The notes beneath the pieces are model-generated. The model saw only the letters and a program-made list of their open reading frames with translations, was not told the origin of the DNA and made no database searches. DNA of 64,000 bases, taken from the IMG/VR virus record IMGVR_UViG_3300027782_000030, positions 1 to 64,000 of that record. One strand, 5' to 3'. This DNA is from a virus. The first letter of the stretch is position 1. Each line of letters begins with the position of its first letter. This document shows positions 9,257-55,651 of this stretch, piece after piece. Made by a program: the position numbers and the translations under genes.

Positions 9257-9330
9257 TGGAGCGGGTAGCGAGAATCGAACTCGCAAATAATCCTTGGCAA
9301 GGATTCAGGTTACCTTTACATCATACCCGC
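9257..9330 (-). tRNA. tRNA-Gly(GCC)
   Basis: Acceptor GCGGGTA/TACCCGC, anticodon loop TTGCCAA, T-loop TTCGATT, CCA encoded. The upstream radical SAM gene ends on the TGA formed by positions 8-10 of this tRNA. Confidence 0.93.
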
Positions 9331-10358
9331 GCTTTCAATGTAGCATTTACTCTACGAACACTGTGACTAATACCACAGTACTGTGTACACTTTGACATAA
9401 CATTCCTTAAGTTGTCAGTACCATACCAAAATCTTTTCAAGTCACCGTATCTCTTTATTTTAAACCCAGGGAACTTATGTGAGAAGCATAAACGGGCAAT
9501 CCCATCCATATCTACCATAATATTTCTGTCGAAGGAATTACAAATCAATTTTTCAGTACCTCGACCATTCCAACCGATCACCGCATCGTTGTTTTTGTGA
9601 ACACTACGATGGTACATCTCAACTGTTTCAATCCATTCAGGATCTAAACTTAGGTTATATTTTTCATTACAATCATTTAATATTTTAAACAACCCTTCAT
9701 GATCTCTAATGACATTGTTGTCGTAAAACTTATCAGCCCGTTGTTTGCCATCTTTATCTATCAGTGTACCAAACATTGGCTGAAGCCAATTTAATTTTAA
9801 CTTATCTGCTTTTAGATCATTCAATACAAAGTCATAAAATTTATCTAAATCTCTGTAATTTTGTTCGCACATTATAGACATTGCGTATACAGGATTAGAT
9901 TTATTTAATTCTTTTCTTGCTTGAAGCAATAGACGAATAGCATTAACAGCCATATCAAATGATCCTACCATGCCTCTAGTTGAATCATGTACTTCAGGTA
10001 TATAACTGTTTAGTGATATAGTAATCTCAGTTGGACCTTCAACGATTAACTTTTTAGCCATTGACAAATCAGTAACCATTGTACCGTTCATCACTGATAA
10101 ACATCTTAGTCCTAATTGGCGACAATATCTAGTAATTGGCCAATATCTTTCAGGATTCATTAATGCTTCACCGCCACATATTACTACTGCACCATGTGGA
10201 TTTAATTCATGAAATTCCTGAATAATATTCCCGCGTTCTTCTATAGTGATATGAGTAGGTAATACAACTTCTTCCCTAGTCCAATACATGCAGGTTTTAC
10301 ATTTTAGATTACACTGTAAGTTAGTATCTAAGAATAGAAATTTTGGCGGGTGATTCAT
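9321..10358 (-). CDS. Radical SAM protein with SPASM-like C-terminal cysteines
   Basis: 345 residues. CX3CX2C at Cys16, Cys20 and Cys23 (QCNLKCKTCMYW) binds the SAM [4Fe-4S] cluster, and VVICGGEALMNPE is the GGE motif. A C-terminal region LICNSFDRNIMVDMDGIARL plus Cys-rich SKCTQYCGISH resembles SPASM/Twitch cluster domains of peptide- or small-molecule-modifying enzymes. The ATG lies 5 nt after a CATAAATA box and has no Shine-Dalgarno. The stop lies inside tRNA-Gly. Substrate unknown. Confidence 0.85.
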   Translation of the reverse strand: MNHPPKFLFLDTNLQCNLKCKTCMYWTREEVVLPTHITIEERGNIIQEFHELNPHGAVVICGGEALMNPERYWPITRYCRQLGLRCLSVMNGTMVTDLSMAKKLIVEGPTEITISLNSYIPEVHDSTRGMVGSFDMAVNAIRLLLQARKELNKSNPVYAMSIMCEQNYRDLDKFYDFVLNDLKADKLKLNWLQPMFGTLIDKDGKQRADKFYDNNVIRDHEGLFKILNDCNEKYNLSLDPEWIETVEMYHRSVHKNNDAVIGWNGRGTEKLICNSFDRNIMVDMDGIARLCFSHKFPGFKIKRYGDLKRFWYGTDNLRNVMSKCTQYCGISHSVRRVNATLKARV

Positions 10359-26036: not shown

Positions 26037-26569
26037 TGAAATATTATTTTAAAGTTAATTTTTTAGAGACTAGGAAGTACACTGATTATTTTTTAAAATT
26101 AATTTCCTCGACAGTTTTTATTAATAACAGTGTTGCTTCGGTGTCATTTAATATCAATGATCCGATGATAAAAGAAATTTCTTCAACATTGAAAGAACTG
26201 CAATTACCTATGATTGGTCAATTTATATTTTTTAAACATCACCGTAATCAAGATATACACAAAGAAGATATCAGATGTAGTTTAAATTTGCCTTTAATAG
26301 GATATGAAAACTCATTGATGCATTTTTATCAAATTAATGCTTTACCTATAAAGAAAAAAAGTGCTTATTATTATAAAGAAACTGATGAAAAAACAATAAT
26401 AGAGACTTTACCAGGTACAAACGAATGGGTTTTGGTTGATTCTTCCGTACCACATTGCATTGTTAACAGCGATTTTAATAATCCTAGATGTACGATAGCC
26501 TTAAGATTTTTAGGAAACCCGACACTGGAAGAATTGAAATTTAAAATTAAACAATTACAGCAACATTAA
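26036..26569 (+). CDS. 2OG-Fe(II) oxygenase-like protein 3
   Basis: 177 residues from the ATG overlapping the methyltransferase stop (TAATG). NQDIHKEDIRCSLNLPLIGY supplies HxE/D, and SSVPHCIVNSDFNNPRCTIA plus LRFLGNPTLEELK the distal His and Arg. Its C-terminus (RFLGNPTLEEL) matches that of the paralogue at 38563 (RFKGNPTFEEC), so those two are close relatives. The last 15 bp overlap the convergent radical SAM gene. Confidence 0.7.
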   Translation: MKYYFKVNFLETRKYTDYFLKLISSTVFINNSVASVSFNINDPMIKEISSTLKELQLPMIGQFIFFKHHRNQDIHKEDIRCSLNLPLIGYENSLMHFYQINALPIKKKSAYYYKETDEKTIIETLPGTNEWVLVDSSVPHCIVNSDFNNPRCTIALRFLGNPTLEELKFKIKQLQQH

Positions 26570-28024
26570 TTTTTCATAATATTGATTTTTTAATATTACC
26601 GTTTTTTCATCTAATTTTTTACCAAATGATTCAAAAGTTAAAGTATCATCTTGTAGAAATTTAAATAAATCTTCCATAGTATATCCTAAATTAAGAATTC
26701 TTCCTACCCAAGTAGCAGCGCCAAATTTATTTTTCTTTTGAACTCTTGGGTCGTTTCTAATATCTTTTACTAAAGCAACTGCTTCTTGAAAAGTCATATC
26801 ATCATTTTCCCACGGACGATCCTTTTCTATTTTAAACCCGAATTTTTTAGGATCCCTATCTATTTTACTAGAATTTCTTCCATCTGGAGAGTCTCTAACA
26901 GTAAGAGGCAAAAATCCAAATACATCAAGAGGACAATCATCACTAACTAAGTAATCTACGCTAGCCAGTATACTTTCCCTACTTTCACCAGGAAGTCCGG
27001 CAATAAAAGTACTACTCGCAATAATATTATTTTTCCATAACTCATTACAATAACTTAAAGTTTCTTTAATTCTATTTGGGCCCAGTCCTTTACCTATTTT
27101 TTTACCTGCTTCTTCATTAAGTGTTTCTATGCCAAAGTGAAGACTTTTTGCACCGCTTTCCAAAAGCAATTCTCTCATCTCAGGAAACTTCCAAATTAAA
27201 TCTAATCTCGCATAACTAGTATATGTTAATTTAAATGGTAATTTAGTTAATACACTATGTATGAATTCCATTTTAGGGACACTTTCATTGATTAGTTCAT
27301 CAGTAAACATATAATGAGTAGTGCCATATAGTTCATAATTTCTAAGTAATTCTGATTTTAAAGTTTCTCCATTTTTTTGCCAATCACCTGCTTTTTTGCC
27401 GATCAGGTCAAATCTGCAAAATGCACAACTAAAAATGCATCCTCTGGCTATTTCTACAGGTAATGATTCCCCTTGAAAAATGATATCATGGGGTTCATAT
27501 ATGATTTGACTATGAGCAAATTGTTCTTGAGTATAAAAATAATCATTTCCATCGATATATGCACATTGATCTTTTTTCATTATTTTTATATCATCACCGT
27601 CTTTGAGATGTTTAATCAATTTAATTATAACATTATCAGCCTTGTTTAGTATTATGTAATCAGTTCCTTCCCAAAAACAATTATCGGTTAGTCTTGCTCC
27701 TCCTAAACAAATTTTAACTTTTGAGTTTTTAGATTTAGCATAATTGGCTATACTAGTAAATTCTTCATTAGGTCTTCCAAAATTCAAAACTTTTCCGTTG
27801 ATTCTTTTTTCCATCAAAGTAGCACCAAACCCCACTAACAAAGTATCTTTGGTTACAAATTTGTCAATGATTTTTTCTAACTGGCTATATTGATAAAAAC
27901 TAAAAAGATCGATAACTTGGCAGGTGTAACCATGTTTTCTTATTTCAGTAGCTACTTTATAAGTACCTGCATATTTTCCATATCCATATGTATCAGCAAC
28001 GTCAGTAAATAATATTATCTGCAT
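26555..28024 (-). CDS. B12-binding-type radical SAM enzyme
   Basis: 489 residues. The N-terminal third (VGFGATLMEK, KICLGGARLTDNCFWEGTDY) has the layout of a cobalamin-binding Rossmann domain. CX3CX2C at Cys196, Cys200 and Cys203 (ARGCIFSCAFCRFDLIGKK) binds the cluster; MFTDELINESVPKMEFI, SLHFGIETLNEEAGKKIGKG and ASSTFIAGLPGESRESI are radical SAM core strands. Such enzymes methylate unreactive carbons or act on lipids and peptides. No B12-binding DxHxxG is obvious, so cobalamin use is uncertain. Confidence 0.85.
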   Translation of the reverse strand: MQIILFTDVADTYGYGKYAGTYKVATEIRKHGYTCQVIDLFSFYQYSQLEKIIDKFVTKDTLLVGFGATLMEKRINGKVLNFGRPNEEFTSIANYAKSKNSKVKICLGGARLTDNCFWEGTDYIILNKADNVIIKLIKHLKDGDDIKIMKKDQCAYIDGNDYFYTQEQFAHSQIIYEPHDIIFQGESLPVEIARGCIFSCAFCRFDLIGKKAGDWQKNGETLKSELLRNYELYGTTHYMFTDELINESVPKMEFIHSVLTKLPFKLTYTSYARLDLIWKFPEMRELLLESGAKSLHFGIETLNEEAGKKIGKGLGPNRIKETLSYCNELWKNNIIASSTFIAGLPGESRESILASVDYLVSDDCPLDVFGFLPLTVRDSPDGRNSSKIDRDPKKFGFKIEKDRPWENDDMTFQEAVALVKDIRNDPRVQKKNKFGAATWVGRILNLGYTMEDLFKFLQDDTLTFESFGKKLDEKTVILKNQYYEKLMLL

Positions 28025-32122: not shown

Positions 32123-33292
32123 ATGAATCCAAAAACCTGTATGTTTCCTTTCACTTCATTGAGTGTGTCGCCCCGAGGCGCAATCAGACCATGCTGCATG
32201 TATAATAGTCCTGATATGCCCACTTGGGAAAATATCAAAGACTTAACATCGGAAGTACCATGGCCTAGCAAATCTATTAAGATACTTCAAGAAAAAATGT
32301 TGAGTGATCGCATAGAAGAATTAACTCCATTGTGCAACTCTTGTTGGGAACCTGAAAATGCAGGACTTGATAGTCATAGATTAAGATACCAAAGATTATT
32401 AGCACTTCCAAATGAAGAGTTAATTAAAACCCCTAAACTAACATTTTTAGATTTACAGTTTGGATACTTATGTAATTTAAGTTGTATTATGTGCCATCCC
32501 GAAGAAAGTTCACAGGTTCAAAAAACAATTTTCAAATTAATAGACAATACTTCAAATACTAAACAAAAAAAAATTTACCAATCTAAGGTAAATTTATATG
32601 ACAACCATGATTGGACTGTAGATGAAAATTCGTATCAAAAAGTTTTGGAATTATGCCAGCCTGTCAAGAATATTAAAATATCAGGGGGAGAGCCATTTTT
32701 TAATCCAAAATTTAAACCTTTCTTAGAATTTTTATTATCAAAAAAAGTTCCAATTGAATACTTACATGTGACCACAAATTTAACTATATACGATAAAGAC
32801 ATTGTTGAACTGTTAAATAGGTTTACTAATGTTAGATTTAGATTCAGTTTAGAATCAATTGAGAAGGAAGATGATTTCCTCAGATGGCCTAGCAGATGGG
32901 AGGACAAACAAGAAAATTTACATGCATATTTAAATCAGTTACACACAAAAAACATTGTTTCTAGTACATGCATTCAAAGTCTAAATTTATTTTCTTTTTT
33001 CAAAACAACCAATTATTTGAAGAATCTAAATTATAATATAACCATTCAACACCAAATCGCTGAAAATTCGTTGGCTGGACTCTATTATTCTGATAAACAA
33101 TATATTCAATATTATTTAAAAAATAATGACACAAATTTTATTTCTAATTACTTAGAAAAAATAATGAATCATAATAATAATTCAGAATTTCAAGTGAATT
33201 ATTTTTTAGATATGGCTAAATTACAAAACAAAAGTATGCAAAATGAATTTCCAATTTGGTATGAATATCATAATAAATACATGTATGAATGA
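32123..33292 (+). CDS. Twitch/SPASM-type radical SAM protein
   Basis: 389 residues. The CX3CX2C motif is at Cys117, Cys121 and Cys124 (QFGYLCNLSCIMCHPE), with GGEPFF (KISGGEPFFNPKFKPF) as the SAM-binding motif. Unusually, extra cysteines lie before the core: Cys6, Cys24, Cys25, Cys71 and Cys74 (RPCCMYN, LCNSCWEPE), as in Twitch-type auxiliary-cluster proteins. The stop overlaps the following 2OG-like gene by 8 bp. Likely modifies a peptide or small molecule with that oxygenase. Confidence 0.85.
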   Translation: MNPKTCMFPFTSLSVSPRGAIRPCCMYNSPDMPTWENIKDLTSEVPWPSKSIKILQEKMLSDRIEELTPLCNSCWEPENAGLDSHRLRYQRLLALPNEELIKTPKLTFLDLQFGYLCNLSCIMCHPEESSQVQKTIFKLIDNTSNTKQKKIYQSKVNLYDNHDWTVDENSYQKVLELCQPVKNIKISGGEPFFNPKFKPFLEFLLSKKVPIEYLHVTTNLTIYDKDIVELLNRFTNVRFRFSLESIEKEDDFLRWPSRWEDKQENLHAYLNQLHTKNIVSSTCIQSLNLFSFFKTTNYLKNLNYNITIQHQIAENSLAGLYYSDKQYIQYYLKNNDTNFISNYLEKIMNHNNNSEFQVNYFLDMAKLQNKSMQNEFPIWYEYHNKYMYE

Positions 33293-47372: not shown

Positions 47373-48947
47373 TCAGAAACTCAATAATAGTAGCTGTCCA
47401 CCTTCAACCAGTTCAGCAGCATTAGTACCAGTGGCTAGTTTATGATTTTGATCAACCAACAAGAAGTAACGCTTGCCATCTGTACGACCTAAGATACTAG
47501 TGATTTCAATGATACCGCTGGTTTCTTCGTCATTGGTCTCAGTTCCAACAACACCTGTGTAATAATCACCAAACAGCTTCTCATCATGTTGAGCAAGTAG
47601 TGTCAATGCCTTAGTAACAGGATTGTATTTCCAAATCTTACCATTGTGATTGTTACCACCAACATCCTCTTGTAGAATGATTGTGCCATCGCTAGCAACA
47701 GTCATGTTGTCAAACATCTGTGTTCCATGAATACGGCCGGCAACTGTAACAGTTTCAGTACCATCGAGCACCATTTCAAGGATGCCACCCGATTCAGGAC
47801 GGGTTAAATCAGTAAATGTCATGCTCCAAAGGCGTGTGCGACCAACTTGAGCAGTATTAGTAATACTGGTATTGATCTTGCCCCCGGTGTTGTCTTTAGC
47901 AGCATCTACTGTGTTGGTTGTTACAAAGTAGTAGCGGTTCTTGTTAACTGTATCCCAAGCACCATCTTCTGGACGCAAGAAACTTGTACCAGCAACACCA
48001 GTTACTGGGACATTAGGAACAAAACTAAATGTAGCAGTCTTATTGACCAGTCCTAGTCCAGCATCAACAGCGGTAGTTTCATTAGCAGCAACACCGCCAA
48101 CATTGACCACAGCACGATATAGCGTACCATTAGTTAGACCTGCTTTATCAACTTCAGTAGCACCAGTCTTGTTTTTAGTGCCAACATACATATAAACACC
48201 ATTGCTGCCACTGTCGCTATTGGCCATAACAATGGTCTTGTCACCGCTGTTGGGATGTGCGATTAGATTTTCCCAGCCTACACCAAATGTGGTAAATCCA
48301 CCAAAGTGTGGGAGAATGTATGCTTTGCCTTTGTCTGCTCCGCTGGCCACGATAGCAAGACCGCGTCCCATTGTAACAGTACCGTTAGCGGTTTCTTCAC
48401 CAGTCATAAACATTTTAACCGAAGAACCATTGCCTGTTGCTGAGTTGAAGAAAGCGCCGGCTGCTGGTAGATCGGCTGAACAGAAACGCTGAAATGCTAC
48501 AGCAGTTTGCTCGGCCCAAGCACCATTGACCTGTGCATAAACTTTTTTCATTAGGTCACTACCGCTCTTGACCTGTAGAGTAGTTTTATCAATAACCCAC
48601 TCACTAACAAAAGCACCAATACCACCATGAGCACGGGCAATACCAACAGTGTTGGCCAGTTCATGAGCCATTAGCACGGTGAATGTGTTGTCACCATTAT
48701 CATAAGCACCCAGTCCATCTGGAATACCCACCATGCGATAAGTGCCAACAGCGTCACCAACGGTTAAGATACTGGCAACTTTAACGCTGCTGTCAATTGG
48801 AACAATGTAGGGATCTACTGAACTGCTAACTGCTTTGCCTGATGTAAAACCAGTAACTTCTTTAGGTGCTGCTACAGTGGTGTCATCGCTACCACATGCT
48901 GTTAATAGAGCCGTTGCTACGGCTACTGCTAGAACGGTATATTTCAT
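47373..48947 (-). CDS. phoX: PhoX-type alkaline phosphatase lipoprotein
   Basis: 524 residues. Lipobox LLTACGSDD gives Cys18 as the anchor. PhoX/DUF839 blocks: DGLGAYDNGDNTFTVLMAHE, SFLRPEDGAWDTVNKNRYYF, RIHGTQMFDNMTVASDGTII and LQEDVGGNNHNGKIWKYNPV. PhoX hydrolyses organic phosphate esters with Ca and Fe. It follows pstS by 25 bp and shares its control region. Phage phosphate genes are known auxiliary metabolic genes in aquatic phages. Confidence 0.85.
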   Translation of the reverse strand: MKYTVLAVAVATALLTACGSDDTTVAAPKEVTGFTSGKAVSSSVDPYIVPIDSSVKVASILTVGDAVGTYRMVGIPDGLGAYDNGDNTFTVLMAHELANTVGIARAHGGIGAFVSEWVIDKTTLQVKSGSDLMKKVYAQVNGAWAEQTAVAFQRFCSADLPAAGAFFNSATGNGSSVKMFMTGEETANGTVTMGRGLAIVASGADKGKAYILPHFGGFTTFGVGWENLIAHPNSGDKTIVMANSDSGSNGVYMYVGTKNKTGATEVDKAGLTNGTLYRAVVNVGGVAANETTAVDAGLGLVNKTATFSFVPNVPVTGVAGTSFLRPEDGAWDTVNKNRYYFVTTNTVDAAKDNTGGKINTSITNTAQVGRTRLWSMTFTDLTRPESGGILEMVLDGTETVTVAGRIHGTQMFDNMTVASDGTIILQEDVGGNNHNGKIWKYNPVTKALTLLAQHDEKLFGDYYTGVVGTETNDEETSGIIEITSILGRTDGKRYFLLVDQNHKLATGTNAAELVEGGQLLLLSF

Positions 48948-48972: not shown

Positions 48973-49953
48973 TTATTTGACTAACTTTGCCCAATCGGCA
49001 CGAACTTGATCCTTAACCTTTTGGGGTAATGGAACATAATCTAGGTCTGTAGCGTCCTTGTCACCCTTTGTATAGACCCAATCAAAAAATTTGGTAACTT
49101 GTTTTGTTCGCTCTCCAGTAGGATATATGAGAATAAATGTAGCGGCAGTAATAGGCCATCCATCTAAATCATTGAGATTAACTGCCATGTTGGGCACTGA
49201 CCAGTCAGCAGTCTTGGCACTTTCAGCAAATGTTAAGTCATCTGGTTGAACTACAGCACCTTTGCGGTTCTTCATGGCCACATGAGTTAGTTTGCTCTGT
49301 TTAGCAAATGCGTACTCAACATAACCAATTGATCCTGCTAGTTGTTGAACGTTAGCAGCAACACCAGCATTACCTTTACCTGCTGAAAGACTTGTTGGCT
49401 TCCAAGTAACAGTTTTACCTGTACCAGTACCTGTTTTGAACTCAGGACTTACTTTACTCAAGTAATCAGTAAACACAGCAGTTGTACCTGATCCATCAGC
49501 ACGAACCACTACATTGATAGCAGCATCAGGAAGTGCTAGACCTGGGTTAAGTTTAACAATAGCAGCATCGTTCCACTTGCTGATTTTACCTTGATAAATG
49601 TCAGCTAGTGTCTTGCCATCAAGAATCATTTTACCTGGCTCAATACCTTTGATATTGATTACAGCAACAACTCCACCGATAACTGATGGGAATTGATATA
49701 GTCCAACTTCTTTTAATTTAGTATCTGGTGTAGGATCATCACTAGCACCAAAGTCTACGGTTTTAGCAATGATTTGAGCGACACCGCCACCACTTCCGAT
49801 TGGATTGTAGTTAACAGTAGTACCAGTTTCTTTGTTGTAGGCTGCTGCCCATTTTGAATAAATAGGAGCCGGGAAAGTTGCCCCGGCTCCAGTAATCTGT
49901 GCTTGTGCAGCAAATGCGGCTGCGGCTAATAGAATTCCAACAATTTTTTTCAT
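48973..49953 (-). CDS. pstS: Phosphate-binding protein PstS
   Basis: 326 residues. Signal peptide MKKIVGILLAAAAFAAQA; mature QITGAGATFPAPIYSKWAAA, YNPIGSGGGVAQIIAKTVDF and VVVRADGSGTTAVFTDYLSK carry the phosphate-binding Ser/Thr/Asp/Gly contacts of PstS, with TAATFILIYPTG near the end. Full length. It binds periplasmic phosphate for the host PstCAB transporter, helping the phage through phosphate limitation. A Pho-box-like site and a hairpin lie upstream. Confidence 0.95.
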   Translation of the reverse strand: MKKIVGILLAAAAFAAQAQITGAGATFPAPIYSKWAAAYNKETGTTVNYNPIGSGGGVAQIIAKTVDFGASDDPTPDTKLKEVGLYQFPSVIGGVVAVINIKGIEPGKMILDGKTLADIYQGKISKWNDAAIVKLNPGLALPDAAINVVVRADGSGTTAVFTDYLSKVSPEFKTGTGTGKTVTWKPTSLSAGKGNAGVAANVQQLAGSIGYVEYAFAKQSKLTHVAMKNRKGAVVQPDDLTFAESAKTADWSVPNMAVNLNDLDGWPITAATFILIYPTGERTKQVTKFFDWVYTKGDKDATDLDYVPLPQKVKDQVRADWAKLVK

Positions 49954-50061: not shown

Positions 50062-50442
50062 TTAGACAGATTGTTTTGATTTATAATCTTCAATAGCCGA
50101 CTTGATTGCGTCTTCTGCTAAGATTGAGCAGTGGATTTTGACTGGCGGGAGGGCGAGTTCTTCTGCAATCTGTGTGTTTCTAATTGTTGCTGCCTCGTCG
50201 AGGGTTTTGCCTTTAACCCACTCTGTGACAAGACTTGAGCTAGCAATCGCTGACCCGCACCCATACGTTTTAAATCTAGCATCTTCTATTACTCCATTTT
50301 CATTTACTTTAATTTGAAGTTTCATCACATCACCGCATGCTGGGGCTCCGACTAGTCCAGTACCTATTGTATTGTCAATTTCAAATTTTCCAACATTGCG
50401 TGGGTTTTCATAATGCGATAATACTTGTGGTGAATAAGCCAT
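50062..50442 (-). CDS. iscU: Iron-sulfur cluster scaffold IscU
   Basis: 126 residues, full length. The three scaffold cysteines are present: Cys36 in VGAPACGDVM (with Asp38), Cys62 in KTYGCGSAIASSS and Cys105 in KIHCSILAEDAI (with His104). NVGKFEIDNTIGTGLVG is typical of the family. The LPPVK motif (97-101) recognised by the HscA chaperone is present. It could supply Fe-S clusters for the phage's radical SAM enzymes. A late box (50461-50468) and AAAGGAGA precede it. Confidence 0.95.
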   Translation of the reverse strand: MAYSPQVLSHYENPRNVGKFEIDNTIGTGLVGAPACGDVMKLQIKVNENGVIEDARFKTYGCGSAIASSSLVTEWVKGKTLDEAATIRNTQIAEELALPPVKIHCSILAEDAIKSAIEDYKSKQSV

Positions 50443-51924: not shown

Positions 51925-53676
51925 TTAATTTATCCAACAGTCACAATTGCACTTGATGACTTCTTCAATTGCATCTGCTACATTGTAAACTGATGGCGAC
52001 AAAACTGCTGCGGTCAGAGCCGCATTTAGATTTGGTGGAATAAGGTTGCTCACCGGTGATCCGGCTAAACTACCTGGGAACGCAGGTCCTCCTATATCTA
52101 ATGGAGTACCTTGTGAATTTGGACCTCCTGCTATAACAGCAATAGGTTCTAACCCAGCTGATCCAGCTTCTAAAATTGCAGAAACTAAACCTGATCTGGG
52201 GTTAACTGATGGTTTGGAAATACCACCTGCAATAGGACTAGTAGCCGATATGATAGGTTGAGCGGGCCCTGTTCCATTTTTAGCAGGTCCTAATAAATTT
52301 TTATTATTAGGATTATTTCGTGCTGTATTTAAAATTTGTTTAATAGGTGATATAGGCTGAGTTGTTGCTAACTTAAATTGAGTAGTATTAGGGTCATAAT
52401 ACCCAATTGGCTGAGCAACAGAATTGCTAGGTAAAGTAAAGGTAGTATTTGGGTTATCAAAGTCTCCGTTAATACCTGTAACTGTAATTCCCTCTATGCC
52501 TGTAGGTAGTGTGCCATTAGAAATCAAAATTTCTATTTCTTGTTGATCCAATTCACCTGGTATATTATTGTCTAACTCTATACCGATCTCTTGTAATCTA
52601 GCACCATTTCTTTCTTGTCGCATCATTGCTACGATGCTTTGACCACCAACTGTAGTTAAATCACTAATAGCCTCTAGCGTTTGAGCATACATATGAGGTA
52701 GAGTGCTTTTTGCAATAGTAGGTATTGAGTCAACAAATACATATAGAGAAGTTGGATACAAGTTTAGCCAAATATCTCTTGTAGGGCTAGGAACTGGAGC
52801 TATACCTGTGTACCTAGTTCTTTGTTCTATAGTAAGTTGCGTACCAAATGCATCATATATCGTGTTTAAATCTACACTGAGTATAGGATTAACTGTCCGT
52901 ATAACTGCTATCTCTGCATTAGCAGCATCAATATAGTATTGTACCGCTGTATTCATTCCTGGCCATCCTGCACTACCATAAGTAGTTGGAGGATTGGCTA
53001 CTGTTCCTGTAGGTACTATCACCGTAACTGGCCCTGCTGAAGTTAGCGCAACTGAAAGTATTCTACCATAAGTAGATAAATCATTAGGATCAGTGCCGAT
53101 AGTAGTACTACCCGTCCCGCCGTTACTTAAAGTAATGCTAGGCGCAGCAGCACCTTCTCTACCATACCCGCCACCTGAATCAGTTAATGTTATTCCTGTA
53201 ACAGTATAGTTTCCAAACCCATCATCAGTATATTGAACAGAAACAGTACCAACTTCCCATATAACTGCTAGATATAAATTTTGATATATGTTTACTAATG
53301 TAGTTGTTTGTAGCGACTGAATACTTGATTGAATGTCAGTCCAAGCATATGGTAAACCACTCATACAACCTAAAAAATCACTCATGGTATAGGTGCCATA
53401 TGGACCGCTCCCCAAAGCAATACGATCATATGCTGCTGAAGCTAAATTAGTACTAGTTGGCACATCTGTACCATTAACTTGATCTAATCCTTTAGTTGTT
53501 TCAATGTTAAAAACTACTTGAGAAAATTTCTCAAAGTCAACGTTGCGGATATTTCTAATCTGCTGCATAGTAGCAGAGAAGGCTCCTGCTGTAACCGCTA
53601 TTTCATCAGGTAGTATCCCTGATAAATATGAACCAAAGCCTTCTTTTGCTACTTGAAAATTTAATGTATCTGCCAT
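51925..53676 (-). CDS. Large phage structural protein (baseplate/tail), 583 aa
   Basis: Begins MADTLNFQVAKEGFGSYLSG. Contains a Gly/Thr-rich domain (about 155-235: GITLTDSGGGYGREGAAAPS, NGGTGSTTIGTDPNDLSTYG) of the kind that decorates virion proteins, then a helical region (AQTLEAISDLTTVGGQSIVA) and a Pro/Gly-rich C-terminus ending CNCDCWIN. It is 2 bp from the Hint-containing protein and in the same transcript as PAAR, so a spike/baseplate role is inferred. No enzyme motif. Confidence 0.65.
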   Translation of the reverse strand: MADTLNFQVAKEGFGSYLSGILPDEIAVTAGAFSATMQQIRNIRNVDFEKFSQVVFNIETTKGLDQVNGTDVPTSTNLASAAYDRIALGSGPYGTYTMSDFLGCMSGLPYAWTDIQSSIQSLQTTTLVNIYQNLYLAVIWEVGTVSVQYTDDGFGNYTVTGITLTDSGGGYGREGAAAPSITLSNGGTGSTTIGTDPNDLSTYGRILSVALTSAGPVTVIVPTGTVANPPTTYGSAGWPGMNTAVQYYIDAANAEIAVIRTVNPILSVDLNTIYDAFGTQLTIEQRTRYTGIAPVPSPTRDIWLNLYPTSLYVFVDSIPTIAKSTLPHMYAQTLEAISDLTTVGGQSIVAMMRQERNGARLQEIGIELDNNIPGELDQQEIEILISNGTLPTGIEGITVTGINGDFDNPNTTFTLPSNSVAQPIGYYDPNTTQFKLATTQPISPIKQILNTARNNPNNKNLLGPAKNGTGPAQPIISATSPIAGGISKPSVNPRSGLVSAILEAGSAGLEPIAVIAGGPNSQGTPLDIGGPAFPGSLAGSPVSNLIPPNLNAALTAAVLSPSVYNVADAIEEVIKCNCDCWIN

Positions 53677-53678
53677 AA

Positions 53679-55373
53679 TTAGTTTAGAACCTCATTAGTA
53701 CCTATCACCTGTTTGACATTATGAGATACTAACCCTTCTGTCAAATAAGTATGAGCATCTGCTACAGTAATCTTTACTACTTCCCCAAAAGAATGTGGTT
53801 TAGTATATTTTACTACTGCTAACTTATTATGGGATGTGATAATATCCCCTGGCATTAATCTTTCAATTTCTATCCAACCTTCTTCTGTTAACATCCTATG
53901 ATTGGCCGAACCTACAAATATAGTATCGTCAACTACTACTTGCCATCTATTAGCATTTTCAAATGATACTGCGGTTACGGGGTACTCACCCCATTCTTTA
54001 GTAGTTTCATGCTGAGTATAAACTAACATACCCTCTTTAACATCTTTGGCATGTATTGAAGTTTTGTCTGCCAACATAATATTGATCCACGGTGCAGGAC
54101 ATCCACCACCTCTATATCGTTCAAGAGGAACTGCGGTTGGGGCTACTTCAGGTGGAATCGGAGCAGGTGGTTCTACTATAGCAGGTGGGCCAGGTGGGAT
54201 AATTACACCTATTTGTTCAACTATTGCAGGTGCTTCTAGCCTAGAACTCACTGAAGTATTGTCAAATATAGGATAGTATGTTTTAGAATTAGTTGGTCCT
54301 GGATTAGCATTATAGATAGGCACAGTCAATGATTGATAACTGTTAGGAAACAATTTCTTAATGTTTAACAAATCAGCAAGAGACTCTAATCCTTGGGTTT
54401 TACAATTTAATGGTATTAATATGTCATCTAAATCTTGACCTATAATAATTAAAAATGCCCCGTATATCTGTTGCTCTTGTAATTTAGTAGGGGTTAACAA
54501 TCTTCCACTAGCAATATCATCAATATCTTGTGATGCCAATCCTGCTGACAATAGCGACAATGCTAATGACTGTGTTATTGTATTATACTTTTTAATAGTT
54601 TGTAGTAGTACTGAGGGTAAACCAAACTTTAGTATCTTTGATAAGTCTATTACCTTACCTGCGGTAATACAGTCTTGACCAAACGCTTGAGTTGCTAGAC
54701 TAACACCAGTTACATCAGCACTGATGAGGTCATTCATATTACTATAAGTGCCTTTAAGGAACTTGCTAGATCCTTGTATTGCATTGATTGTAGTATTAGA
54801 ATAATCTATAAAATTTTGAGCATTTAGAAAACTTGATACAAAATCTTTATACTCAGGCATGCCTGAACCTGCTACAATGCCATTCCAATTAAATTCATTC
54901 CAAGCTTGAAGAGCATATAATCTCAAAAATCCCCATTGGGTAACACTTTTGTTATTATTAGTAGTATCATAAGGAATCCAAGTTGCACTTTGTCCATCGC
55001 CAGTATCACCAGCTGTTGAATAACCAGTCGTTGCCTCTCCTTGCCATTGACCAGTAGGGTCACTAGTAGTGTATCCTGGGCTTTTTGCATTACCTAATGC
55101 AGGGATAATATCTTCACCTATAGCAATTAAATTGTCATAGGTCGAAGTTCCTGTAGGAGTTTTAGCAACATTGCCATTATACGCAGCATATATGGCATAG
55201 GTCAAAGGTTTTAAACATGTGTTGTTAACTAGACTACCCGGAGTGTAAGTAGTATTTGTCTTACTGGTTCCTATGTACCCTTGATTAGTAGGGTTAATAC
55301 ATAGCCCTATATTTTGTAATAAGGAACTATTTACATTTACACCTAATGGACTTTGTTTACCTGTAATACTCAT
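53679..55373 (-). CDS. Baseplate/spike-associated protein with C-terminal Hint domain
   Basis: 564 residues. The first 400 look structural (NTTYTPGSLVNNTCLKPLTY, DIIPALGNAKSPGYTTSDP) and are followed by a Pro-rich linker (IGVIIPPGPPAIVEPPAPIP). A complete Hint domain occupies about 425-552: Cys425 at CPAPWINIMLADKTSIHAKD, block B GSANHRMLTEEGWIEIERL (His492), LMPGDIITSHNK, and the end TYLTEGLVSHN (His551-Asn552) followed by Val. The residue after Asn is not Ser/Thr/Cys, so splicing is unlikely but self-cleavage is possible. It overlaps the PAAR gene by 4 bp. Confidence 0.85.
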   Translation of the reverse strand: MSITGKQSPLGVNVNSSLLQNIGLCINPTNQGYIGTSKTNTTYTPGSLVNNTCLKPLTYAIYAAYNGNVAKTPTGTSTYDNLIAIGEDIIPALGNAKSPGYTTSDPTGQWQGEATTGYSTAGDTGDGQSATWIPYDTTNNNKSVTQWGFLRLYALQAWNEFNWNGIVAGSGMPEYKDFVSSFLNAQNFIDYSNTTINAIQGSSKFLKGTYSNMNDLISADVTGVSLATQAFGQDCITAGKVIDLSKILKFGLPSVLLQTIKKYNTITQSLALSLLSAGLASQDIDDIASGRLLTPTKLQEQQIYGAFLIIIGQDLDDILIPLNCKTQGLESLADLLNIKKLFPNSYQSLTVPIYNANPGPTNSKTYYPIFDNTSVSSRLEAPAIVEQIGVIIPPGPPAIVEPPAPIPPEVAPTAVPLERYRGGGCPAPWINIMLADKTSIHAKDVKEGMLVYTQHETTKEWGEYPVTAVSFENANRWQVVVDDTIFVGSANHRMLTEEGWIEIERLMPGDIITSHNKLAVVKYTKPHSFGEVVKITVADAHTYLTEGLVSHNVKQVIGTNEVLN

Positions 55374-55651
55374 GGGCAGTATACGTCCGGGCTACCATCT
55401 ACGATAGGATGACCGCATGTATTACCTGAACCAGTTCTTAATACAGGTTCTCCTTCAGCAAAAACAGTAGGACTACCTGATGTAGTTCTAGCAGCACTAT
55501 GCGGAGGATGGGGTTTTCCAAACGGAGCATGGGGAGTCATTACACTTACATGTAATCCCACAGGTATACCATTAGCGAATACCGTGCCGGCTCCCCGCAT
55601 AATTTTTCCACCTGCGGAATTTGCATCACCCTGTCTGCTCAATTGCGCCAT
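55370..55651 (-). CDS. PAAR-repeat spike-tip protein
   Basis: 93 residues. MAQLSRQGDANSAGGKIMRG, a central HAPFGKPHPPHSAARTTSGS and VFAEGEPVLRTGSGNTCGHP match PAAR proteins that cap the spike of contractile injection machines with a metal-bound tip (His/Cys ligands). It sharpens the tail spike for outer-membrane piercing. It is coupled to the Hint-containing gene, which therefore probably sits at or in the spike. Confidence 0.9.
   Translation of the reverse strand: MAQLSRQGDANSAGGKIMRGAGTVFANGIPVGLHVSVMTPHAPFGKPHPPHSAARTTSGSPTVFAEGEPVLRTGSGNTCGHPIVDGSPDVYCP

What the first reader, a model, noticed from the sequence alone, without database searches (positions are those of the whole stretch)
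53679..54101. Self-processing Hint domain in a spike-associated protein
Residues 425-552 contain all Hint blocks with Cys at the start and His-Asn at the end, followed by Val. This is the layout of bacterial intein-like or Hedgehog-type domains that cleave but do not splice, usually found in toxins and adhesins. Next to PAAR it suggests a virion protein that matures or releases a part by autoproteolysis.
Basis: partly seen in the sequence, partly recalled or inferred. Interest (0 to 1): 0.6.

Follow-up and report, generated by a model that had tools for sequence, protein, structure and literature searches.

The report
Self-cleaving tail on phage spike-region protein
A large freshwater bacteriophage ends one of its predicted tail-spike-region proteins with an intein-like domain that should cut itself off, and many uncultured phages carry such a domain at the same spot, where the protein is split in two genes instead of one, so phages seem to use it to finish tail proteins after they are made.

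Summary
Residues 425-552 of the 564-aa ORF 53679-55373 (-) form a Hint (hedgehog/intein) domain with Cys425, a block-B S-x-x-H, block F, His551-Asn552 and +1 Val; dN/dS is 0.08. It follows a Pro-rich linker and Gly-Gly-Gly and leaves only a 12-residue tail. It best fits an A-type bacterial intein-like (BIL) domain. It is not an intein with a splicing +1 nucleophile and not a pretoxin Hint, since nothing lies downstream.

The context is the news. The protein lies directly after PAAR in 72 of 73 relatives. In 28 of 73 relatives it is one ORF with the next gene, and none of those carries a Hint. Of the 45 split ones, 21 end in a Hint, of two very different subtypes. Two phages about 97% identical differ by a clean swap of a 523-bp Hint module for an 85-bp plain tail. 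The second subtype also sits exactly where the T4-like VrlC baseplate protein is split in two, and ends other virion proteins. All 59 distinct copies are terminal.

Most likely the Hint removes itself at Gly424|Cys425, leaving the Hint-less form that close relatives encode directly. Conjugation through the Gly thioester is not excluded. No cleavage has been shown.

The parts
53679..55373 (-). Hint-bearing protein P0001, 564 aa (ORF incl. stop)
54186..55373 (-). conserved N-terminal virion-type domain, residues 1-396; >500 relatives in IMG/VR, none in cultured phages
54102..54185 (-). Pro-rich linker (residues 397-421) and Gly422-424 immediately before the scissile bond
   Evidence: Gly at -1 in 53 of 59 type-2 modules
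53718..54101 (-). Hint domain, residues 425-552: Cys425 (block A), Ser489/His492 (block B), His541 (block F), His551-Asn552 (block G)
53682..53717 (-). 12-residue C-terminal tail VKQVIGTNEVLN; +1 residue Val, no splicing nucleophile
   Evidence: dN/dS 0.47 on only 5 changes
51925..53676 (-). P0002, 583 aa, start codon 2 nt after the stop of P0001; fused to the P0001 N-domain in 28 of 73 non-redundant relatives
55370..55651 (-). PAAR protein (93 aa), ATGA overlap with P0001; conserved directly upstream in 72 of 73 relatives
   Evidence: (PF05488 E=7e-10)

Best explanation
P0001 is made as a precursor: a predicted baseplate/spike-region domain (1-396), a flexible Pro/Gly linker and a C-terminal A-type BIL-like Hint domain. 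Cys425 attacks the carbonyl of Gly424 (N-S acyl shift, helped by Ser489/His492), giving a thioester that is resolved by water or another nucleophile and releases the Hint. Asn552 cyclisation can release the 12-residue tail. With Val at +1 the canonical trans-esterification step is not available. The mature protein would be residues 1-424 ending in Gly-Gly-Gly, close in extent to the Hint-less orthologues that end at the same point. Shown by sequence: the domain, its intact catalytic residues, its strictly terminal position, its optional presence and its conservation. Inferred: that it cleaves, that the protein is in the virion, and what cleavage is for (most likely maturation of a baseplate/spike component during assembly).
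For: Domain and catalytic residues. Purifying selection, dN/dS 0.078. The second subtype in the same position folds confidently as HINT (pLDDT 88.6) with matches NpuDnaB intein TM 0.75/0.84, Hedgehog 1at0, BIL 2lwy and BUBL BIL2 6tmm. The close relative L007 has no Hint and ends '...PLEQYRNN*' where the window reads '...PLERYR-GGG-Cys'. L053 and L062 are ~97% identical phages, one with a 523-bp Hint module, the other with an 85-bp plain tail, so the protein can exist without a Hint. All 59 distinct type-2 modules are terminal (tails 6-18 aa), Gly at -1 in 53, +1 never Cys (V 30, M 9, A 8, I 5, S/T 4). BIL domains without a +1 nucleophile mainly give cleaved products (PMC4031507, PMC7664689).
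Against: No biochemical data. The block-F Asp is Lys in the window copy and block B has Ser instead of Thr, so N-terminal cleavage could be slow, with C-terminal cleavage dominating. Type-2 modules lack the block-B His. Virion location is inferred from synteny with PAAR only; no cultured relative exists. The full-length model of P0001 is poor.
Confidence: 0.58

Rival explanations
1. Conjugating Hint: the Gly424 thioester is resolved by an amine (a Lys or the N-terminus of a partner), so the N-domain is covalently attached to another tail component, possibly the separately encoded second half (P0002), re-making post-translationally what other relatives encode as one chain. This is what Tetrahymena BIL2 does after Gly-Gly.
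For: Closest solved relative by profile is BUBL1 BIL2, E=9e-10; BIL2 makes isopeptide bonds and dispenses a ubiquitin-like domain (PMC8616854). A-type BILs can ligate through a free amine (PMC4031507). Gly-Gly-Gly-Cys is nearly invariant. In two unrelated protein families (P0001/P0002 and VrlC) the Hint sits exactly between two halves that are one chain in relatives. A penultimate C-terminal Lys occurs in 55 of 59 type-2 tails.
Against: N-termini of the downstream halves show no Cys/Ser/Thr or other feature that tracks with Hint presence. Hint-less split phages do without re-joining. On other virion proteins (Xanthomonas/Stenotrophomonas phages) no second half is evident. The window tail lacks the penultimate Lys.
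Confidence: 0.17
2. Remnant of a mini-intein once inserted in the fused gene, later cut off by a stop codon and now a passenger.
For: The Hint lies at the site where the gene is continuous in relatives; phage inteins are common.
Against: dN/dS 0.08. The terminal tails are not seen in the junctions of the fused relatives listed. Two very different subtypes occupy the same site and one of them is terminal on other, unrelated proteins. No case among 28 fused relatives has an internal Hint. No endonuclease.
Confidence: 0.08
3. Inert structural or assembly domain: the Hint fold serves as a C-terminal cap or intramolecular chaperone and does not cleave.
For: It is always C-terminal on virion-type proteins; the block-F Asp is lost in the window.
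Against: Cys1 and His-Asn are retained in every aligned type-1 and type-2 copy, not expected for a purely structural role.
Confidence: 0.12
4. Pretoxin-type Hint that releases a downstream toxin.
For: The only Pfam hit is PT-HINT, E=0.003, below cut-off.
Against: Only 12 residues follow the Hint; tails of 6-18 aa in all type-2 relatives; no toxin domain in P0001.
Confidence: 0.02

Closest known systems
A-type bacterial intein-like (BIL) domains (Amitai 2003; Dassa 2004, via PMC4031507 and PMC7765530)
   Same: Hint fold, Cys1, C-terminal His-Asn, no +1 Cys/Ser/Thr, cleavage expected
   Different: Described BILs lie in hypervariable bacterial proteins; here the module is the C-terminus of phage tail-region proteins behind Gly-Gly-Gly, at gene-split points
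BIL2 of the Tetrahymena BUBL1 locus (6Y75/6TMM)
   Same: Best profile match to the window Hint; preceded by Gly-Gly; no canonical splicing
   Different: Eukaryotic, between ubiquitin-like domains, Zn-regulated; conjugation is not shown here
Class-1 mini-inteins (Mtu RecA, NpuDnaB, gp41-1)
   Same: Blocks A, B, F, G; fold (type 2: TM about 0.66-0.87 to these)
   Different: No +1 nucleophile, no C-extein beyond 12 residues, block-F Asp replaced by Lys
Hedgehog C-terminal autoprocessing domain (1AT0)
   Same: C-terminal module releasing the N-terminal part via a thioester; fold match for type 2
   Different: No sterol-binding region; keeps the His-Asn of block G
VrlC-type (DUF4815, phrog_358) T4-like baseplate-region protein
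   Same: Carries a type-2 Hint at a split in uncultured phages, the same arrangement as P0001/P0002
   Different: Unrelated in sequence to P0001; single ORF without Hint in phiM9 and Mosig

Membership tests
HINT superfamily | Sequence/fold similarity over the whole domain, blocks A, B, F, G | tested here: met
   (E 9e-10, profile of 3 rows); type-2 relative by fold
Class-1 intein | Cys/Ser/Thr at +1 and a C-extein to ligate | tested here: not met
   Val553, 12-aa tail; +1 never Cys and only 4 of 59 S/T in type 2
A-type BIL domain | Cys1 plus terminal His-Asn with variable, non-nucleophilic +1 | tested here: met
A-type BIL domain | Autocatalytic cleavage at the N and/or C side | not testable with these tools
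   needs expression and mutants
Hedgehog C-terminal domain | Sterol-recognition region after the Hint | tested here: not met
   12 residues follow the Hint
Pretoxin-HINT (PF07591) | Score above Pfam cut-off | tested here: not met
   18.2 bits vs 27.7
Pretoxin-HINT (PF07591) | Toxin domain C-terminal to the Hint | tested here: not met
   tails 6-18 aa
BUBL-type conjugating BIL | Isopeptide formation through the C-terminal Gly | not testable with these tools
   Gly-Gly-Gly-Cys context present; activity unknown
Virion (baseplate/spike) protein | Presence in purified particles | not testable with these tools
   PAAR directly upstream in 72/73; T4-type gp23 capsid gene in the same record

The most novel reading that the evidence does not exclude
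A phage-wide, ATP-independent protein-conjugation system: Hint modules at the C-termini of tail-baseplate proteins form a Gly thioester and transfer the protein onto an amine of a partner, covalently welding tail parts or re-joining the two halves of proteins (P0001/P0002, VrlC) that other phages make as one chain.
Probability: 0.16. Interest if true: 0.88.

Novelty: new variant of a known kind. Interest (0 to 1): 0.6.

Why it matters
Self-processing Hint domains are known from inteins, Hedgehog proteins, BILs and toxins. Here they are a recurrent, optional C-terminal module of uncultured phage tail-region proteins, placed at points where a protein is divided into two genes. If active, it is a route to tail maturation or covalent tail assembly without a protease or ligase, and near-identical natural variants with and without the module make it directly testable. 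I found no description of this in the open papers searched.

Tried and rejected
Pretoxin/polymorphic toxin: no downstream domain. Splicing intein: no +1 nucleophile, and none of 28 fused relatives has an internal Hint. Split intein across P0001/P0002: the Hint is complete in P0001 and P0002 has no Hint hit. Cys-dependent ligation to P0002: N-termini carry no matching nucleophile and do not track with Hint presence. Cultured-phage relatives of P0001, P0002 or a fused homologue: none. Bacterial genomes: no relative of the window Hint or of type 2 found with the patterns used. A search with a mixed type-2 alignment (A1) had no conserved stretch. Full-length AlphaFold2 of P0001 failed (pLDDT 55), so no fold search was made with it. 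hhalign of the type-1 pair vs type 2 gave only 52% probability, so the two subtypes' kinship rests on the shared fold class, not on direct sequence similarity. Annotated terminase/helicase/RNR inteins in phages are ordinary splicing inteins.

Full report
Observation. The 564-aa ORF at 53679-55373 (-) carries, from Cys425 (codon 54101-54099) to Asn552, a Hint domain, followed by Val553 and a 12-residue tail VKQVIGTNEVLN. The motifs are C425 (A), S489-A-N-H492 (B), VVKITVADAHTYL (F) and SHN|V (G). Single-sequence searches are suggestive (PT-HINT E=0.003, below cut-off; Mtu RecA intein E=0.008). A three-row profile that includes a free-standing Lak-phage Hint protein (about 30% identical) hits the Tetrahymena BIL2 domain at E=9e-10 and the Mtu RecA intein at about 2e-6. 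The domain is under strong purifying selection against the copy in a 335-kb contig (dN/dS 0.078).

Context. The window is part of a 200,570-bp virus record with a T4-type gp23 capsid gene. P0001 overlaps the stop of a PAAR gene (ATGA) and is followed after 2 nt by P0002 (583 aa). Neither P0001 nor P0002 has a relative in cultured phages, but IMG/VR holds more than 500 relatives of the P0001 N-domain. PAAR is directly upstream in 72 of 73 non-redundant relatives.

Junction anatomy. In 28 of 73 non-redundant relatives P0001-N and P0002 are one ORF (mostly 900-1130 aa) and none has a Hint. In 45 they are separate genes; 24 of these have only a plain tail, 2 have the window-type (type-1) Hint and 19 a very different Hint (type-2: Gly-Gly-Gly-Gly-Cys-Val...Ile-Leu-His-His-Asn). 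Fisher p=7e-6 for Hint only in split genes, but the rows are related, so this is not a true probability; parsimony on the tree needs at least 5 Hint/no-Hint and 6 split/fused changes. The window's neighbour on the tree, L007, lacks a Hint and ends '...PLEQYRNN*' where the window reads '...PLERYRGGG|C'. L053 and L062 are about 97% identical over 2.86 kb upstream and 1.2 kb downstream of the junction, yet one has 523 bp with a Hint and the other 85 bp of plain tail. The Hint is therefore an exchangeable terminal module.

Type-2 fold. AlphaFold2 on 18 natural type-2 modules gives pLDDT 88.6; Foldseek's best matches are inteins (NpuDnaB TM 0.75/0.84), with BIL 2lwy, BUBL BIL2 and Hedgehog 1at0 among the top 40. 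Cys1 and His-Asn are invariant in all 18 and in the cultured-phage relatives. The block-B His position is Ala in all 18. Direct profile comparison of type 1 and type 2 is weak.

Same module elsewhere. Type-2 modules end other proteins: the VrlC/DUF4815 baseplate-region protein (phrog_358), and proteins next to gp5-like hub, gp25 and gp6-like wedge genes. In the VrlC case the first ORF covers profile positions 5-1113 and ends in the Hint, and the next ORF covers 1191-2054, whereas phiM9 and Mosig have one 1737- and 2045-aa VrlC matched in order by both halves. So in two unrelated proteins the Hint sits exactly at a split. Modules also end proteins of Xanthomonas, Erwinia and Stenotrophomonas phages, at least one of them in a baseplate/tail gene neighbourhood; there no second half is evident. 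Of 59 distinct type-2 modules all are terminal (tails 6-18 aa), 53 have Gly at -1, +1 is never Cys, and 55 tails have Lys as the penultimate residue.

Mechanism. Known chemistry (PMC4031507, PMC7664689, PMC7765530): Hint domains with Cys1 and His-Asn but no +1 nucleophile form the N-terminal thioester and cyclise Asn; they mainly cleave, and A-type BILs can ligate through a free amine. Tetrahymena BIL2 makes isopeptide bonds after Gly-Gly (PMC8616854; the Gly-Gly is seen in the chain aligned). The most economical reading is self-removal at Gly424|Cys425, giving a mature protein like the Hint-less orthologues. Conjugation to an amine, perhaps joining the split halves, is the bolder reading; it explains the Gly run and the split-point placement, but no matching acceptor feature was found at the downstream N-termini. 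Cleavage, virion location and purpose are all untested.

Novelty. The chemistry and fold are known; the placement as an optional terminal module of phage tail-region proteins at gene-split points was not found in the papers searched (open-access library only).

Noticed in passing
L182:62-7689, L186:2-7676 (also G008, G009, G010, G011): VrlC/DUF4815 virion protein is split into two ORFs with a type-2 Hint at the end of the first; single ORF in phages phiM9 and Mosig.
   Followed up: yes
L053 vs L062: Near-identical phages differing by a clean swap of a Hint module for a short plain tail: a natural with/without pair.
   Followed up: yes
L088:4977-5450 (Prevotella phage Lak-B5): Free-standing 157-aa Hint protein (Asn-Gly-Gly-Cys ... 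His-Asn-Ser), not annotated.
   Followed up: partly
type-2 tails, e.g. L166, L112, L186: Penultimate C-terminal Lys in 55 of 59 tails after the Hint; reason unknown (acceptor amine? strand? overlap with the next gene's ribosome site?).
   Followed up: partly
window 51925-53676: P0002 and its relatives end in a conserved C-N-C-D-C-W motif; its middle weakly matches phrog_460 (Hc2).
   Followed up: no
window 48973-49953, 50062-50442, 47373-48947: By eye, PstS-like phosphate-binding protein, IscU-like scaffold and a PhoX-like phosphatase: host-type metabolic genes beside the tail genes; not searched.
   Followed up: no
window 26555-28024, 32123-33292, 9321-10358: Three radical-SAM-like proteins in one phage window.
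   Followed up: no
L224:209-4465 vs L240:295-4471: gp5-like hub and a following Hint-bearing protein appear fused in L224 and separate in L240; the homology of the second parts was not tested.
   Followed up: partly
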